Source: Streptomyces seoulensis
GTDB taxonomy: Bacteria; Actinomycetota; Actinomycetes; Streptomycetales; Streptomycetaceae
Assembly (NCBI RefSeq): GCF_022846655.1
Contig: NZ_AP025667.1
Span: forward strand, 5,679,001 to 5,743,000
Reading direction: 5' to 3'
Length of the DNA: 64,000 bases
Shown here: in pieces, positions 27,741 through 36,336 of the stretch
Layout of the letters: each line of letters opens with the position of its first letter
How positions within the stretch are numbered: position 1 is the stretch's first letter
The notes under the pieces: model-generated
Told to the model about the DNA's origin: nothing
Databases searched by the model: none
Seen by the model: the letters and a program-made list of their open reading frames with translations, nothing else
Position numbers and translations under genes: made by a program

Positions 27741-28580
27741 TCACGAGCCACCGTCCTCAAGGGACTCAAGGAACTCGCGGGCGCCACGGAGCCTCGTGCT
27801 CAGTCGTCGCTGGGTGGCGCGGCTGTCGAGGCGCACGTCGAGAGGACCCGGTACCCGCGTGTCCGCCCGGCGGCCGGCCGGCAGGCGGGACACGTCGAGG
27901 CCGTCGCGCCGGGCGATGCGTACGCCGAGGTCGTAGCGGCTGAGGGCGTCGGGGCCCGCGAGGTGGAAGAGTCCGGCCGCGTCGGAGCGGGTGAGTTCCC
28001 ACAGGGCGGCGGCCAGGTCCGCGACGTGCACGGGGCAGCGGACGTCGTCGGTGAAGAGAACGCCTTGCCGTGTTCCGGCGATCAGCGCGTGCGCGAGGCG
28101 TTCGTGGTCGGAGCGGCCGCGGCCGACGATCAGTGAGGTGCGGGCGACGGCCGCGTCCGGACACAGGAGCCGCACGGCCGTCTCGGCGGCGGCCTTCGCC
28201 GCACCGTAGGGCGTGATCGGGTCGGGGTCGCAGGTCTCGTCGTAGTGGACCCGGCTGCCCGAGAAGACAGCGTCGCTGGACACGTGCACCAGGCGGATCC
28301 CGAGCTTCGCGGTGGCCATGGCGATGTGGACGGACCCGTCCGCGGTGACCTTCCAGTCCGCCCCGCCGCTGGTCACGTCCACCACCGCACGCGGCGCGAC
28401 CGCCTTCAGCAGCGCCTCGACCCGGGCGGGATCACGGACGTCGAGCCGATGCCAGGCGGCGAGCGCGGGCTCGCCGGGACGGGAGTGGAACGTCGCGGCC
28501 GCGTCCCACCCCTCAGCACGCGCCTGGCGCAGCAGCTCCGTCCCCAGGAAACCGCTGCCCCCGATGATCAGCACCGTCAT
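27741..28580 (-). CDS. RmlD-like NAD(P)-dependent sugar-nucleotide reductase/epimerase
   Basis: Extended short-chain dehydrogenase of 279 residues. The nucleotide-binding motif is IIGGSGFLGTELL at the N terminus. The serine and YxxxK pair appear as VHVSSDAVFSG and YGAAK. The closest broad match is dTDP-4-dehydrorhamnose reductase (RmlD). It has no sugar-cluster neighbours here, so the substrate is uncertain. It lies next to the left end of the integrated element, so it is probably the core gene that originally followed ychF. Confidence 0.82.
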   Translation of the reverse strand: MTVLIIGGSGFLGTELLRQARAEGWDAAATFHSRPGEPALAAWHRLDVRDPARVEALLKAVAPRAVVDVTSGGADWKVTADGSVHIAMATAKLGIRLVHVSSDAVFSGSRVHYDETCDPDPITPYGAAKAAAETAVRLLCPDAAVARTSLIVGRGRSDHERLAHALIAGTRQGVLFTDDVRCPVHVADLAAALWELTRSDAAGLFHLAGPDALSRYDLGVRIARRDGLDVSRLPAGRRADTRVPGPLDVRLDSRATQRRLSTRLRGAREFLESLEDGGS

Positions 28581-28639: not shown

Positions 28640-28669
28640 AAAAGGGCCCGACTCCGGAGAATCGGGCCC
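28640..28669 (-). terminator. Displaced ychF-type terminator outside the left element end
   Basis: GGGCCCGA (28644-28651) pairs with TCGGGCCC (28662-28669) around a loop containing CTCCGGAG. On the minus strand TTTT follows (28643-28640). It sits 26 bases beyond the duplicated ychF tail at 28695-28722, just as another terminator follows the real ychF end at 35055. Confidence 0.75.
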
Positions 28670-28694
28670 CTTCTCACCTACGAGCTTGCCGGAG

Positions 28695-28722
28695 CAGCAC
28701 CGGCTAGACGTTGAAGCGGAAC
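28695..28722 (-). repeat. Left att-like repeat: duplicate of ychF 3' end
   Basis: 28 bases matching 35046-35073 at 26 positions. Read on the minus strand it encodes FRFNV then TAG, exactly as the end of ychF does. Both differences (CGC for CGG, GTC for GTG) are at third codon positions, so the copy still looks like coding sequence. Expected for an attachment site formed inside a conserved gene end. Confidence 0.75.
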
Positions 28723-28774
28723 CTATAGCGCGGAGCTCCCACCTGCGGAAACGCGGGTTCTCCAGTGGGCGTCC

Positions 28775-28794
28775 CAGCACCATCCCAGCACGGG
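28775..28794 (+). repeat. Arm-type repeat, left copy
   Basis: CAGCACCA-TCC-CAGCACGGG, identical outside the middle three bases to two copies at the right end of the element, in the same orientation. It lies 52 bases inside the left att-like repeat. A further CCCAGCACC lies at 28803-28811. Confidence 0.65.
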
Positions 28795-28869
28795 CGTTCT
28801 ATCCCAGCACCGTGCATCTGGACGGCTCTCGCCACTCTCACCCACCTTGCATGTCGGCGCTCCGGCTCG

Positions 28870-29070
28870 TCTCCATGGACAGGGGGACATCGCGTGCGTG
28901 GATGCAGGCTGCGGCACACTGCAGAACTTCCCGAAAGCGATGACATGTGCGAGTAGCCGACGGCTGTAGACCTCGACCGATCGTTGCCCCAGCCAACCCG
29001 AGACCGCACGGAGATCGACACCCCATTGACCAAGGCTACGGAGGCTAAGAAGTCCCGCATACTGCCGGGC
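28870..29070 (-). pseudogene. Remnant of tyrosine recombinase/integrase C terminus
   Basis: No continuous frame, but two minus-strand frames together read like the end of a Streptomyces integrase. One frame gives MRDFLASVALVNGV and later YSHMSSLSGSSAVCRSLH. The other gives VDLRAVSGWLGQRSVEV and LLAHVIA. These correspond to the LRHxYASxAL, WLGHxSxxVT and Y-x-H-V-I blocks. The catalytic histidine and tyrosine environment is disrupted by shifts. Similar debris may extend to about 29300. Its place beside the att-like repeat is where an integrase gene is expected. Confidence 0.6.
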
Positions 29071-29454
29071 GGGCACTTGACGGTGCTGTCCACTCCCACC
29101 AGGCTGACCGACCGCCATGCCAACCTCCATGGCGCGATCCCAAAGGCGCCCAGTGGGGTACTGCGCCAAACTTGCAGCCCGCTCGCTGGCCGTGGCGGAG
29201 AACGCGATGATCGACTGTACGACTGAGCTTCGGCGATCAACACACCTCACAAAGCGCTGCGTCGCACTTCTGGGCAACAGGGTGCGCCACGCACAGACCT
29301 ACCAGAATGATCACGTCGAACTGCTTCATCATCGGGAGATTCTTGTGGCGTCCGTCGCGCTGGTCCACTGCACTACTCTCATGCTGCAGCCCCTCCCGGA
29401 ACCCCCACCACGCTGGCTTCAGGGAGCAGCTGCCCCAGGCGCTACTAGGACTAA

Positions 29455-29718
29455 TGCTCTTCCTTCGGCGGCAGTACGACCGAGGCGGTATGGGGAAGGT
29501 TCGACCCGCGGATCTTCCTGCGGGACTCCCCGCCGGCCACGAGAGTCCAGGCGGCGTTCCGCTCCGCCTACGGCCTGACCAAGGTCGGCGCAGTCGCCGT
29601 CGGTACGGACGACGTCGACCACCTGCGGGAGCTGGTCGGCGCCCTGGCGTATGAGGTCGACGACCAGGTGGTCCGGGAGTACCGACAGCTCCTCCTGGCC
29701 TGCCGTCAGCCCGCCTGA
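29455..29718 (+). pseudogene. C-terminal gene fragment, possibly an oxidoreductase
   Basis: A + strand frame with no usable start (stop at 29452) has clear coding character: RFDPRIFLRDSPPATR, then KVGAVAVGTDDVDHLRELVG, ending at TGA 29716-29718. The VGTDDVDHLRELV portion resembles the C-terminal end of aldo/keto reductases, a weak memory-based match. It collides tail-to-tail with the phosphotransferase pseudogene, overlapping it by 13 bases. Likely a truncated leftover. Confidence 0.5.
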
Positions 29719-30508
29719 AGTTCCTTCGCCACTCGCTCCGCCGTCTCCCGGGCGGCCCCCAGTCGGGGGTCGTCCGGGTCGGCGTAGGGGCCGAGGATCT
29801 TCGCGGCGACGAACAACGTCATCATCCTGCCGTCCCGGCTCTCCAGATCGTCACGCCGCTCGCCGCGGACGCGATCGGCCAGAGTCGGGACAGCGAGGGA
29901 GGCACCCCACAGATTCGCCGCGTCCAGGCCGCGCGGGGCCATGCCCCAGTCCTCCCAGTCGAACACACAGAGCGCCGGCGCCGTCACATCCACGTGGGCC
30001 GGACGCCAGTCGGCCACGGCCGTATCGACGCCGGGGAAGACGCTGTGAATCGTCGCCGTGACCAGCTCCTGTGTGAGGGTTTCGGTGTCCGGTGTCGCGA
30101 TCCGGTTCGTGAGCTGCGCGGCGAGGGCGTCCAGGGAGGCATTCAGCGCGACCCACATTCCTCGGTCATCCCCGGGTCCTCCGCCACCACGGCGCTGCCT
30201 ACCGGCGCCCCGGGCAGCAACTCCGTCTCGTCCGCCCGCCACATCACCGGCTCCGTCTCGTCCCGCCACGCGACGCCGGCAAGCCAGGCCGGTTTCGCGA
30301 TCCCGCGCAGGGCCTCGGCGGACGCGGTGCCGTCCCCACCCTGAACCCCGATCCGGTCGAGCCCACGCCGCTCGATACGCACCCACGTATCGCGGTCCGT
30401 ACGCACGCCAATCGAGCGGCGCTTGCGTACGACGGTGTCCCGACTCAGGCGCGTCTGAAGCGACCGCTCCACACGATTGAGAACCTCATCAGCAGGTTCA
30501 ACCCGCAA
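29706..30508 (-). pseudogene. Frameshifted aminoglycoside-phosphotransferase-like gene
   Basis: Two minus-strand frames join to one product. The first (30508 to about 30170) begins RVEPADEVLNRVERSLQTRL and includes IAKPAWLAGVAWRDE. The second (about 30180 to 29706) has MWVALNASLDALAAQLTNR, then ALCVFDWEDWGMAPRGLDAA and a helical end. DWE-DWG after a hydrophobic strand matches the metal-binding end of APH-type kinases. The expected catalytic HGD-x4-N is degraded to VADWRPAH. A frameshift lies near 30170-30180 and no good start codon exists (TTG at 30508 only), so it is dead. Confidence 0.7.
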
Positions 30509-30660
30509 ATCGACGGAACGGGCCGCAGGTACCGAGAGCGTGATACGTGCGACCGTAGCAGCGGGCCATCACGTGCAGGCCCATCTCGGCCAAGTAGCCA
30601 TGCGCCTCGTACGGAGGAATCCAGCCGTCGAACTGGAGTCCTCCGCAGTGATCCGAGCAT

Positions 30661-33138
30661 CTATCCGCGGGCACCCGTGATCGTCAGCAGGGTGTCCCAA
30701 CTGCTCGCCTGACTCAGGTGGTCCTCAGTGGCGAACAGGTGCTTCCACGCACCGAAGTCTCCACGATCGGTCACCTCCTTGGCCCAAGCCAATGCGGCGA
30801 CCTTCTTCGCAACGACCGACTCACTGGACGCCTCCGCGTTGGACTTGCCCTCGACGAGCCAGTGCACACCGTCCGTGTCTATGGCGATGAAGTCCGGGAA
30901 GTACCGGGAGCCGTTGTCGAGTTGGATGTACGTTCCGCTCTGCGACTCAAGCCGAAGCCACCAGTCGACCTTAGGACTGACATCCATCAGCCTCGCCAGC
31001 TTGACTTCGGTAGACAGGGCATCGAAGTGAACAACAGGAAGAATCGAGCTGCCCCAGCCCGTGTACCCCATGCCGCGGATTACCTTGTCGGTCATCTGCA
31101 TCTGAGGCATCGTCTGTCCGGGCCACGGCCGGGCAGGCGGCGGGACCGTCACCTTCACGATCTCGTGTTCGACTACCGCAAGTTTCTGCTTGAAACTGGA
31201 GACCACAAGCCTCTCCAGCTGCGTCAACGCAAGCTCCGCCCGAGCTTCCTCCCAGGGCGTGCTGTCCTCCGCGTCAACTTCGATCGCCGCTCCGAGGAAG
31301 GTATGCACGATCTCCTGCGCGGCCTCCACCTCGTCAGCCGTGAGCTTCAACTGCGGCAGATTGAGGATCTTCTCTTCGAGGTCTTCCCTGACCTTCGAGA
31401 TCGGCCAGCTGCGCTGAGTCGCGACGGCGGACTTCTGGTCCTCCGCCTGCACCGTTACGGTTCCGTCCAGTCCACGCGAGGCGTTCAGTGCCTTGCGCTT
31501 CAGCTCCACCTCAATTTCGTGCTTGAACTGCTTCCCCTTCTCCGCGACGGCCTCGGTGCTGACGAAGGACAAGCTGTAGGTGTCCGGCTTCTCCAACAGG
31601 CGCTTGCTGGGGAACTTGATGGCCGGCGCCCCATCAGCAGGCTTCATAACCTGCTGGATCTCCTTCTTCTCCACCCCCGCTTCGGCAAGCCGGTGTTCCA
31701 TGTCGGCCAGACCGAGATAGACAGCCTCGGACGTCTCAGTGCCGAACCCGCCGTCCCTGACAGGTGCCTCGGCGGTGAACGCCAACATCCCTTGCGTCTG
31801 GGATTCGTGGTAGGCGGGCAGAGGGCTTGCGCCACCAGACTTGGCCGCGGCACTCGCTCCAGCTCCTGGCGTGCCGCCGTTCTCCGACCGCTGCGGAAGA
31901 GTGTGTTCGAGGAGGGCTTCCTTCGAGTCCAGAAGCTTCCGGTATGACTCATGAGCAATGATGTCGACGCAGTCGACCATCGAGAACCCGACTCGTTCAC
32001 CGTAGGGAAGGCGCAGGCCGCGGCCGAGGATCTGCTCGGTGAGGGTCTGAGAGGCGAGAGCACGCCGCGCAACAATCACGCTGATGTTTTTGACATCCCA
32101 TCCCTCCTTCAACATGTCGACGGAGACCACGGCCCGCACCGGGGAGTCCGGCTCCTCGATGCCGGCGAGAGCTTCGAGCGCGTCGTCCTTGCTGCCGGAG
32201 GTGATCTGCAACACCGCGCCCGGTTCGTCGATGAATCCTGGGCCAGCCAAGATCGAGGCGCTCTCGGTGGCTTCCTCAATGCTCTGACAGACCACGAAGA
32301 GGACGGGATTGACCATGGGCCGCCCATTCCTCTCAGCCCACTCCCGGGTGGTCTCCTCCTTCACCTTGCGCAGATGGCAGGCGTCAGCCAGTTGAGTACG
32401 AACGTCGTTGTGCCCGTCTTCGCGGTAGACGATGACAGGAATCTTGACGAGCTGGTCTGCGATGGCCTCGGCAAGGGAGTACTGGAAGACGATCCTGCCG
32501 GGCACCTTGCGGTCAGTCTCGTCAGGGGTTGCCGTCAAGCCCACTAGCGCACGGGGCTGAAGATCCCGGACCGCCTCATGGAACTTCCTCGCGTCACTCC
32601 GGTACACGTGATGCTCATCGGCGATGACGACCAAGTCATCTACCGTCCGCAAGTGGTCGTACAGAGCCGTCCCGATGAACTCATCGGTGATGTACGTGCT
32701 GCGCGAGGTCTTCACAGTCGGCTTGGTCAGCAGCTGGACGTTGAAGATGAAGACCTTCAACGCGTCTGGGTCGTGCAGCGCATCGCCGACGCGGCCACCC
32801 GCATAGTTCTCCGGTGTGATGACGATCGGCTCGTAGTTGGCGCCCGGAACGAACTTCGGGTGGCCGGGTGTGAAGTTGGCGAGCGTCTTCCTCTGGATGG
32901 TCCGGCCAGGAGTAACGATCAGGATGTTGCGAACACCCTGTTCGGCGAGGTAGTCGATCAGGCCCCGGCAGATGTACGTCTTACCCACACCGGTTGCCAA
33001 GTCACAGACGACTTCCCGCCCGTCCCCCGACTGGATCTCCTCAACGACCTTGGCCACGGCGCGACGGTTAGGGTCCCGGAGCTCCATGCGAGTAGCCAGG
33101 TCCTCGATCGCTGCCTGGTCGTATGTGATCCAGCTCAA
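30661..33138 (-). CDS. Type III restriction enzyme, Res subunit (DEAD/DEAH helicase-nuclease)
   Basis: ATP-dependent restriction subunit of 825 residues, somewhat shorter than typical Res. Motif I is ATGVGKTY (near residue 49), motif [10 protein letters not shown], and motif [14 protein letters not shown], so it is a superfamily 2 helicase. Near the C terminus [19 protein letters not shown] has the PD-(D/E)xK nuclease pattern (D...ExK). It starts at TTG 33138 within the TGA of the methyltransferase gene (TTGA overlap), so translation is coupled. With its partner Mod it would cut unmethylated DNA between head-to-head sites. The recognition sequence is unknown. Confidence 0.87.
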
Positions 33139-34748
33139 CGCAGCACACGTCCCTTCATGTCCAACAGATCCTGAGGAGCCTTCTTAATACGCGAGCCGGG
33201 GCTGAGATTCTCCAGAAGGCTTGCTGCCTCGCGCAGGTAACTCTTTGCCACGATGAGAACCCTCTCGTCCTCGCCCAAGGCCTCAACAATCGACTGAACT
33301 GTGCTCTCGGAAACGAGCCCATCGACAACCGCCAAACGCTGTCGCCCCTTGCGACCGACGAACGGCGGCTCGGCCCCGGGCTCCAACTCGAAGCCAGGAA
33401 GCTGCGCACAGGCGGCTTCAGCGAACGCGTCGCCGATCACCCACGAAGCGAGGAGAACCCGGTGGCCCAGGCACTCATACATAGACGGCGCGACTTCCAG
33501 ATGCCGGAAACCTCCGCCCTTCTCCCAGCCCGCCGATCCAGAGATGCCCCCCGGATCCTCACCGTTGACGATCTTTTCCAGGCGCGGGCGAATGAACGAC
33601 TTAACACTCTCCAGTTCACGTTCAACTGTCACCCAGCGCCGACCCATCTTGTGCGCCACAGCAGCTGTCGTGCCGGATCCAGCAAAGCAATCGAGAACGA
33701 TATCGCCAGGGTTAGATGAAATGGTGATGATCCGTTGCAGCAATCGCTCCGGCTTGGGGGTGCTGAAAGTGGCGGTTCGGCCGAACAATGCAGCACTCTC
33801 CTTGGCCGCCTCTTCCGTATGACCGGTTTCTTGATGAGGCCACCAAGTGTTTGGGACAATCCCCGGCGCTTCGGAAAGAAACTGCTTTACCCGAGGCACA
33901 CCGAGCCCGTTGGATCCGAAATAGATCCGATCATCCTCCAACAGTTTATCGAAGGCTTCGCGAGTCGTTCTCCAACAGCGCCCACTCGGCGGAAGATGCA
34001 CCTTACCCGAGGGCGCCATGATCTCGTACGTGAGATTTGGTCGAAGATTGGGCGCACTGAAAGAGATGGAGCGCCATGGCCCTCGCGGGTCTTCATCGGG
34101 ATTGACGTAGTCGCTTGCCTGCTCAGGCACCAGCGGCAGCTTGTTACGCACCGTCCGGAATTTGGCAGAATTCTTCGCATACACCAAGATGTAGTCATGA
34201 GACGTAGAGAAAGTCGCATCATTCGATCGAGAATGACGTCGCTGCCACAAAATCGTGGACATGAAGTTGGCCCTGCCGAAGATCTCGTCCAGTAGCACTT
34301 TACAGTAGGCCATCTCCGTGTCGTCGAGTTCCAGCCACAGGCTTCCTTCGTCCGACAGCAATTCGCGAATCAGCAACAGCCGGTCGCGCATCATGGTGAG
34401 CCAGATCGAATGCTCAAGTCCATCATCGTAGTGCTCGAAGGCCAGCCCCGTATTGAACGGCGGGTCGATGTATACGAGCTTGACCTTGCCTCGGTACTTG
34501 TCCGCGAACTCGGGAAGCCTCGCCAGCGCCCTCAGCGCGTCTCCACTATCCCCCGCGATCAGCAGATTTTCCTCAGCTCGCTTGAGGTCGTCATGTACCT
34601 CTCCAACAGTCGCAACATCCCGGAGGAGACGCGTCTCGGTCACCCGGAAGTCGTCCCGGTCGACCCACGCGTAGCCGCCGTCCTGGGTGCTGATGAGCGA
34701 CCTGTCCTTGTTGATCCAAGACAGACTGAGACGCCCCGAGGTGCCCAT
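33135..34748 (-). CDS. Type III DNA N6-adenine methyltransferase, Mod subunit
   Basis: Site-specific DNA methyltransferase of 537 residues. The ATG at 34748 is preceded by GGAGGAAAGAC, which overrides the longer frame. The catalytic motif DPPFNTG (near residue 100) comes before the SAM-binding motif DCFAGSGTT (near residue 360), the beta-class order used by type III Mod proteins. The stretch between them would hold the target-recognition domain. It overlaps the Res gene by four bases. Composition is less GC-rich than the flanking core genes, in keeping with transfer. Confidence 0.88.
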
Positions 34749-34892
34749 GTCTTTCCTCCAACTGTCGTGACTTTTGAAGCGTACCGGCGGGGACCGACAA
34801 CGAGGGCCAGTCGGCGTGCAACCTGCTTCGTCGGCTGCTCGGTTACTGCGGGAGACGCGCCAGCACCTCCGCCTTCGCCGGCAGTCGAGAGT

Positions 34893-34912
34893 CAGCACCA
34901 AACCAGCACGGG
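34893..34912 (+). repeat. Arm-type repeat, right copy 1
   Basis: CAGCACCA-AAC-CAGCACGGG. The same 17 fixed bases as at 34949-34968 and 28775-28794, same orientation. It lies in the 306-base gap (34749-35054) between the mod start and the ychF stop. That gap holds no gene, only these repeats, further CAGCAC units and the ychF terminator. Confidence 0.65.
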
Positions 34913-34948
34913 AGGGGTGCAGAGGGGTGCTGAGCGGTGCCCACAGGT

Positions 34949-34968
34949 CAGCACCAAGTCAGCACGGG
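34949..34968 (+). repeat. Arm-type repeat, right copy 2
   Basis: CAGCACCA-AGT-CAGCACGGG, 77 bases inside the right att-like repeat and 56 bases from the first right copy. Confidence 0.65.
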
Positions 34969-34972
34969 CGTG

Positions 34973-35005
34973 AAAAGGGGGCCTGCCTCCGAAGAGCCAG
35001 ACCCC
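34973..35005 (-). terminator. Intrinsic terminator of ychF
   Basis: On the minus strand a stem with GGGG/CCCC, CTG/CAG and CTC/GAG pairs closes on a TTCG tetraloop and is followed by CTTTT. One internal mismatch and one wobble. It lies 50 bases past the ychF stop, inside the element. Confidence 0.8.
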
Positions 35006-35054
35006 ATTTGGCCTGCGCGTTTGCCAGGTCATGAGTGTCGTGCTACAGCACCGG

Positions 35055-36143
<1,089 letters not shown>

Positions 36144-36336
36144 GTTTGCGACTTCCCGTAGATGAGTGGGCCAGGGGCTGCCAGAGGCCAGGGGACACCG
36201 GCCGATCCACCAGTTTACGGCGTCCGCGCCGGGCAATTAGCGGGAGCGTCCCCCGTCCGGCCGGACTCACCCCGCGGACACGTCTTCGGCGTGTCTGAAG
36301 GGCGATTCGGCACATAAACAGACCTAAGTTGGTCCA

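What the first reader, a model, noticed from the sequence alone, without database searches (positions are those of the whole stretch)
28695..35073. Integrated element bounded by a duplicated ychF 3' end
The last codons of ychF (FRFNV-stop) plus nine following bases occur twice in direct orientation, at 28695-28722 and 35046-35073. They agree at 26 of 28 positions, and both differences fall on third codon positions. Each copy is followed by its own terminator. Between them lie recombinase debris and a type III restriction-modification pair. This is what site-specific insertion into the 3' end of ychF would leave: the gene stays intact and its old tail is displaced. I do not recall ychF being described as an attachment site.
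Basis: partly seen in the sequence, partly recalled or inferred. Interest (0 to 1): 0.8.

Follow-up and report, generated by a model that had tools for sequence, protein, structure and literature searches.

The report
Restriction cassette parked behind ychF
A 6.4-kb DNA segment carrying a restriction-modification system has inserted into the very end of the ychF gene and replaced the few bases it displaced; the same gene end turns out to be a much-used docking site for mobile DNA in Streptomyces.

Summary
The repeat is real (26 of 28) and marks a site-specific insertion at the 3' end of ychF. The near copy is the living gene end. The far copy is the displaced old end, 123 bp before the rmlD-like gene. 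MAG Streptomyces sp. Bin2.31 has ychF joined to that gene with one tail. Relative L127 carries the same type III R-M pair (66/80%), an intact 426-aa tyrosine integrase and a second tail; the window keeps only an integrase remnant.

The site is widely used. Of 295 genomes of the genus, 93 hold two or more matches to the tail pattern; the reversed pattern gave none. Integrase lineage A: 12 of 18 full-length members at 54% identity or more have an exact tail behind the gene, 0 of 5 more distant ones. Lineage B: 8 of 9 at 81% or more, 0 of 21 others. A third lineage abuts ychF in two genomes of other families. Cargo is rich in restriction-modification genes.

The window element is an integrase-dead, perhaps cis-mobilisable cassette. 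No held paper that I searched describes this site; the pneumococcal one lies upstream of ychF. Known mechanism, new site.

The parts
27741..28580 (-). RmlD-like gene, flank beyond the element
   Evidence: RmlD_sub_bind 7.7e-40; orthologue follows ychF directly in Bin2.31
28640..28673 (-). terminator-like hairpin behind the displaced tail
28704..28721 (-). far tail copy (attachment core at the far end; displaced old ychF end)
28732..28746 (-). GCAGGTGGGAGC motif beside the far core, shared with relatives
28775..28791 (-). arm-type repeat GTGCTGGGATGGTGCTG at the far end
28905..29129 (-). remnant of the C-terminal part of a tyrosine integrase of lineage A
30661..33138 (-). Res, type III restriction subunit (825 aa)
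   Evidence: ResIII 5.6e-18; REase_III 7.8e-48; 80% to L127
33135..34748 (-). Mod, type III methyltransferase (537 aa from ATG)
   Evidence: N6_N4_Mtase 4.3e-46; MTase_III 1.5e-137; 66-69% to L127
34893..34909 (-). second arm-type repeat at the near end (GTGCTGGTTTGGTGCTG)
34949..34965 (-). arm-type repeat GTGCTGACTTGGTGCTG at the near end
34974..35014 (-). hairpin behind the near copy, carried by the element
   Evidence: not accepted by the terminator scan
35055..35072 (-). near tail copy: end of the living ychF (attachment core at the near end)
35055..36152 (-). ychF, intact
   Evidence: YchF-GTPase_C 2.9e-38

Best explanation
A circular mobile element once recombined, by its own tyrosine integrase, with a short core (TTCCGSTTCAAYGT, codons F-R-F-N-V) at the 3' end of ychF. 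The element brought its own copy of that core with a stop codon, a hairpin and arm-type sites, so ychF was resealed and the old tail with its terminator moved to the far end. The cargo is a type III restriction-modification system. The integrase has since decayed to a C-terminal remnant, so the element is stuck unless an integrase of the same lineage arrives (a cis-mobilisable element). Shown: both cores, both sets of arms, a joined empty site, an intact relative with integrase, and the integrase-to-tail association with its absence in more distant integrases. Inferred: strand exchange within CCGSTTC, integrase binding to the arms, excision, mobilisation in trans, and that the restriction system works.
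For: Tail pattern twice in the window, none in shuffles. Joined flanks align to Bin2.31 over their whole length. L127 has the same R-M pair, an intact integrase and two tails. The window's two ends are themselves hits of the arm-plus-tail patterns, which occur in 61 and 34 of 295 genomes; reversed control none. Lineage A: exact tail behind 12 of 18 full-length members at 54% or more, 0 of 5 at 46% or less. Lineage B: 8 of 9 against 0 of 21. G+C 0.60-0.62 over the R-M genes against 0.73-0.75 on the rmlD side.
Against: The window's own integrase match is short and weak (E 5e-6 and 1.1e-4). Six of the 18 lineage A members lack an exact tail directly behind them: L063 and L068 lie near a contig end, L064 has a decayed tail, L075, L079 and L082 only have tails farther off. 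Just behind the stop, Bin2.31 resembles the element's near end more than the window's far flank, so it may be a scar and not a virgin site. Excision was not seen; no experiment.
Confidence: 0.92

Rival explanations
1. Tandem duplication of the ychF end, with unrelated genes gained between the copies later by ordinary recombination.
For: Two copies of a gene end in direct orientation; 26 of 28 bases alike.
Against: Over 27 pairs the likeness stops at about 14 bp: most positions upstream are at 0.04-0.4 identity. A duplicated gene end would carry longer homology. Arm repeats and integrases at the ends are unexplained.
Confidence: 0.03
2. The window segment is a deletion remnant of a larger prophage or conjugative element that used the same site.
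For: Tyrosine integrases are shared by phages and conjugative elements; nearest named phage hit is Streptomyces phage Success, 31.5%. A lineage B element (L046) has ORFs that resemble mobilisation genes (recalled resemblance, not scanned one by one). The 28.7-30.6 kb stretch is decayed.
Against: No phage structural or transfer family was found in the ten window ORFs scanned. The intact relative L127 is itself only 7.1 kb between tails with the R-M pair, one unidentified ORF and the integrase.
Confidence: 0.1
3. A small non-autonomous cassette that never needed its own integrase and was always moved by others' enzymes.
For: Short elements bounded by two tails without a hit to lineage A or B exist (L109 0.87 kb, L116 0.83 kb, L044 1.67 kb).
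Against: The window has an integrase remnant in the right place and orientation, and its relative L127 has the whole gene.
Confidence: 0.06

Closest known systems
PAISt of Streptomyces turgidiscabies at the 3' end of bacA (PMC4057263; passages)
   Same: Streptomyces; tyrosine integrase; insertion at the 3' end of a protein-coding gene; duplicated gene ends, internal copies and tandem arrays.
   Different: Other gene (bacA), an 8-bp palindrome as core, an island of hundreds of kb with virulence cargo; here ychF, a core of about 14 bp and mostly small cassettes.
Cis-mobilisable elements (CIMEs) and accretion in Streptococcus (PMC7563491; passages)
   Same: Elements that keep both attachment sites but have lost recombination and transfer genes; tandem stacking with complete elements.
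   Different: Described there for Streptococcus and other target genes; cis-mobilisation was not tested here.
Actinomycete integrative and conjugative elements, AICEs (PMC3218068; passages)
   Same: Actinobacterial, tyrosine integrase, 3'-end integration.
   Different: AICEs with tyrosine integrases sit mostly in tRNA genes and carry transfer and replication genes; none was recognised in the window element.
Pneumococcal prophages and satellites beside ychF (PMC6375853, PMC8637289, PMC10383233; passages)
   Same: ychF is a neighbour of the attachment site.
   Different: The site lies upstream of ychF, between genes, and changes its promoter; here it lies in the 3' end of the coding sequence.
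SGI1 at the 3' end of trmE and islands in dusA (PMC8409611, PMC4482086; abstracts in the search listing only)
   Same: A conserved housekeeping gene end used by island integrases.
   Different: Other genes, other integrases, mainly Gammaproteobacteria for SGI1.

Membership tests
Integrative element of the tyrosine-integrase type | direct repeats at both ends that reseal the target gene | tested here: met
Integrative element of the tyrosine-integrase type | empty site in a relative with a single copy | tested here: met
   Bin2.31; possible scar noted
Integrative element of the tyrosine-integrase type | arm-type integrase sites inside both ends | tested here: met
   sequence pattern only; binding not tested
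Integrative element of the tyrosine-integrase type | intact integrase gene in the element | tested here: not met
   window: remnant only; relative L127: intact
Integrative element of the tyrosine-integrase type | excision as a circle | not testable with these tools
   needs PCR or reads
CIME (cis-mobilisable element) | both attachment sites kept, no working recombination or transfer genes | tested here: met
CIME (cis-mobilisable element) | moved by a related element that docks beside it | not testable with these tools
   no relative of lineage A at E 1e-20 or lineage B at E 1e-60 in the window's own genome
AICE | FtsK-like transfer and replication genes | tested here: not met
   none among ten window ORFs scanned
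Prophage | phage structural genes | tested here: not met
   none among ten window ORFs scanned
Type III restriction-modification | adjacent Mod methyltransferase and Res helicase subunits | tested here: met
   enzymatic activity not tested

The most novel reading that the evidence does not exclude
The 3' end of ychF, through a core of about 14 bp that spells the gene's last residues (FRFNV), is a genus-wide docking site in Streptomyces and is also used in other actinobacterial families. At least two, perhaps three, distantly related tyrosine-integrase lineages came to use it separately. It hosts stacked small cassettes, many with restriction or other defence genes and some with no integrase, and so works as a modular defence bay served by shared integrases.
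Probability: 0.62. Interest if true: 0.68.

Novelty: new member of a known kind. Interest (0 to 1): 0.58.

Why it matters
It adds an attachment site that the papers I could search do not describe, with a tail pattern present in 270 of 295 sampled genomes of the genus and integrases that could be tested as integration tools. It gives a marked place to look for unknown defence genes, since cargo between tails is rich in restriction systems. It offers a reason why the DNA behind ychF differs so much between species.

Tried and rejected
A serine recombinase origin: rejected, since the remnant and the intact relatives are tyrosine integrases. A 28-bp core: rejected for about 14 bp. An integrase in the short elements: L096, L099, L100, L101, L109, L110, L113 and L116 gave no hit to lineage A or B; their ORFs were listed but not each identified. 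Lineage A outside the genus: in 216 genomes of the class 13 hold relatives, 28-35% identical. I first labelled these 'other site' in the tree without looking; on checking, L217 and L222 do abut ychF, so the first tree count (6 changes, which also mislabelled L084 and the unresolved L068, L071, L074) is replaced by 3 changes, of which well-supported branches force 2. Plasmids: 192 records, all under 60% identity to lineage A. rmlD as a guide to empty sites: only 4 of 82 loci (two genomes) have ychF beside it. Papers: one search found none, none, two listings without relevance that I did not open. Of the 11 papers I looked at the ychF passages of six (PMC10383233, PMC13046425, PMC8460829, PMC6951406, PMC4289293, PMC1796617): apart from the pneumococcal one ychF is there a marker gene or, in PMC8460829, one of many genes listed with a staphylococcal island group. 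Two papers that might list ychF as a target (Mageeney 2020, Botelho 2023) are not held, and the TIGER/Islander data table named in PMC12424338 (whole text read) could not be opened, so an unpublicised entry cannot be excluded.

Full report
OBSERVATION. The two stretches exist as described. The tail pattern TTCCGSTTCAAYGTNTRR is found only at these two places in the window, with none in 100 shuffles. The near copy is the end of an intact ychF. Between the copies lie a type III Mod and Res, a decayed stretch at about 28.7-30.6 kb whose ORFs have no Pfam match above cut-off, and a C-terminal integrase remnant at about 28905-29129. In the remnant the histidines of the HxxR and LGH motifs are replaced and the frame is broken (translations, alignment; motif names recalled). 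G+C is 0.60-0.62 at 31-35 kb, 0.73-0.75 at 24-28 kb and 0.70-0.73 at 36-40 kb.

EMPTY SITE. In the MAG contig of Streptomyces sp. Bin2.31 (L132; the contig of G001:C468) the rmlD-like gene begins 109 bp behind the ychF stop, with one tail and no restriction genes; in the window the far copy's stop lies 123 bp before rmlD. The window's flanks, joined at the core, align to Bin2.31 along their whole length, 84% over 922 columns. In S. virginiae ISP-5094 (L133, G058) ychF lies about 0.8 kb before rmlD, without the R-M genes. Against: just behind the stop Bin2.31 resembles the element's near end more than the window's far flank. The element may have captured a ychF 3' region with its terminator, or Bin2.31 may be a scar.

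INTACT RELATIVE. L127 (G279) reads ychF, tail, two arm repeats, mod (66-69%), res (80%), an unidentified 300-aa ORF, an intact 426-aa tyrosine integrase, second tail. Nucleotide similarity to the window covers the ychF end to early mod (80%) and late mod to the end of res (77%), and no more was found beyond res.

ATT ANATOMY. In 27 pairs whose first copy belongs to ychF (of 36 pairs found), near and far copies agree over TTCCGSTTCAAYGT and fall to 0.33 at the next free position. Fixed positions were part of the search pattern, so the informative ones are the free positions inside (0.89 and 0.78) and those outside. Arm-type repeats GTGCTGNNNNGGTGCTG lie inside the ends: 61 of 295 genomes have them behind a tail and 34 of 295 in front of one; the reversed pattern gave none. 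The window's two ends are among these hits. A 7-bp overlap CCGSTTC between AACGT-like arms is my inference from the sequences.

LINEAGE A (410-aa query from G002). Of 295 genomes 117 have some match at 1e-20. Of 30 loci returned, 18 are full-length at 54% or more. Eleven have an exact tail within 1.5 kb behind the match (ten at 177-211 bp, one at 798 bp) and one at 2.15 kb (L065 = L097). L064 has a decayed tail. L063 ends 13 bp behind the gene but lies 9.4 kb behind ychF. L068 has 0.9 kb of contig and no tail on it. L075, L079 and L082 have none within 1.5 kb; their nearest same-strand tails are 28.6, 16.1 and 1.5 kb away. The five full-length loci at 38-46% have none; best 16 of 18, inside a gene. 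Seven fragments or broken copies (L071, L074, L083, L084, L086, L091, L092) were left out of the count; L083 and L084 do have a tail (17 and 18 of 18). L063 and L070 were seen before through ychF and so are not independent.

LINEAGE B (372-aa query from G024). Of 189 genomes 58 match at 1e-60. Of 30 loci, nine are at 81% or more: eight have a tail 111-112 bp from the C-terminus on the opposite strand, and the ninth, L251, is a fragment without one in 1.5 kb. The 21 at 61% or less have none. Four of the eight (G024, G171, G188, G096) had been met before through ychF; G145, G101, G080 and G062 had not.

LINEAGE C. Among 13 distant loci from 216 genomes of the class, L217 and L222, from two other families, abut ychF itself (80-81% tail identity), convergent like lineage B, at 35% identity to lineage B. 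In the tree of 47 rows with corrected labels the ychF habit needs 3 changes; well-supported branches force 2 (midpoint root, long branches present). So at least two origins are likely and three possible.

HOW COMMON. Of 295 genomes, 270 hold the tail pattern and 93 hold two or more matches (tallied). A match was not checked in each genome to be part of an element; the pattern also lets TGG pass. Of the 93, 84 have all matches on one strand. The place list is cut; of the 32 multi-copy genomes in it, 27 have copies on one contig and strand, four only on different contigs, and one (G112) has an opposite-strand match without a stop codon. Of 37 listed spacings 34 are under 30 kb, median 8.4 kb. 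Arrays of three or more tails occur, mixing lineages A and B in G096. Some short elements have no hit to either integrase (L109, L116, L044).

CARGO. From 30 loci, 142 of 211 ORFs between tails were compared with 142 of 407 ORFs from rmlD-flanking loci. PADLOC families at 1e-10: 233 against 31; many models are redundant, and the control too hits some defence models (PprPIWI, SoFic, PD-T4-6). Pfam at 1e-5: HsdM_N 5, HSDR_N 3, Methylase_S 3, ResIII 4 and Phage_integrase 8 among element ORFs; none of these is in the 25 control families listed, of 137. ORFs were picked by codon G+C, elements are partly related, and the control is one kind of region, so this is enrichment without a clean statistic.

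WHAT IS KNOWN. Searches for ychF with attB and integrase, integration site, Streptomyces and integrase, genomic island, for EngD, and for the RefSeq name turned up only pneumococcal elements upstream of ychF (passages). A 2026 paper that compares characterised Streptomyces att-int systems does not mention ychF in its main text (PMC12924846; passages). The mechanism is that of PAISt at bacA (PMC4057263; passages) and of CIMEs (PMC7563491; passages). Hence a known kind at a new site.

Noticed in passing
G000:C1:4809694-4809711 (L093, L122), same genome, 904 kb from ychF: A third tail copy flanked by arm repeats on both sides, like an attP or a middle tail of an array. Beside it lies an ORF matching the PADLOC candidate PDC-S18 (2.9e-140); farther off, ORFs with type II methyltransferase hits and one resembling a transfer coupling protein (recalled). 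How it came there is open.
   Followed up: partly
29490-30500: Pieces that look like an aldo/keto reductase end and a phosphotransferase-like gene (recalled resemblance; no Pfam match above cut-off), between Res and the integrase remnant.
   Followed up: no
L057 (G034, another family of the order): ychF stop followed by the same GTGCTG-GGTGCTG arm repeat, so the near-end module may reach beyond Streptomyces; one of five loci of that family looked at.
   Followed up: no
G264:C60:135236-321549; G306:C1:1282904-1412734; G246:C1:2577512-2665627: Same-strand tails 84-186 kb apart: either very large arrays or islands, or rearrangements.
   Followed up: no
L116 (0.83 kb), L109 (0.87 kb), L044 (1.67 kb): Very small elements between two tails with no integrase hit; L116 has arms at both ends and a small ORF that looks like an antitoxin (recalled resemblance).
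   Followed up: partly
L127:11761-12663: 300-aa ORF between res and integrase in the intact relative, without NCBIfam or PADLOC match at 1e-5.
   Followed up: partly
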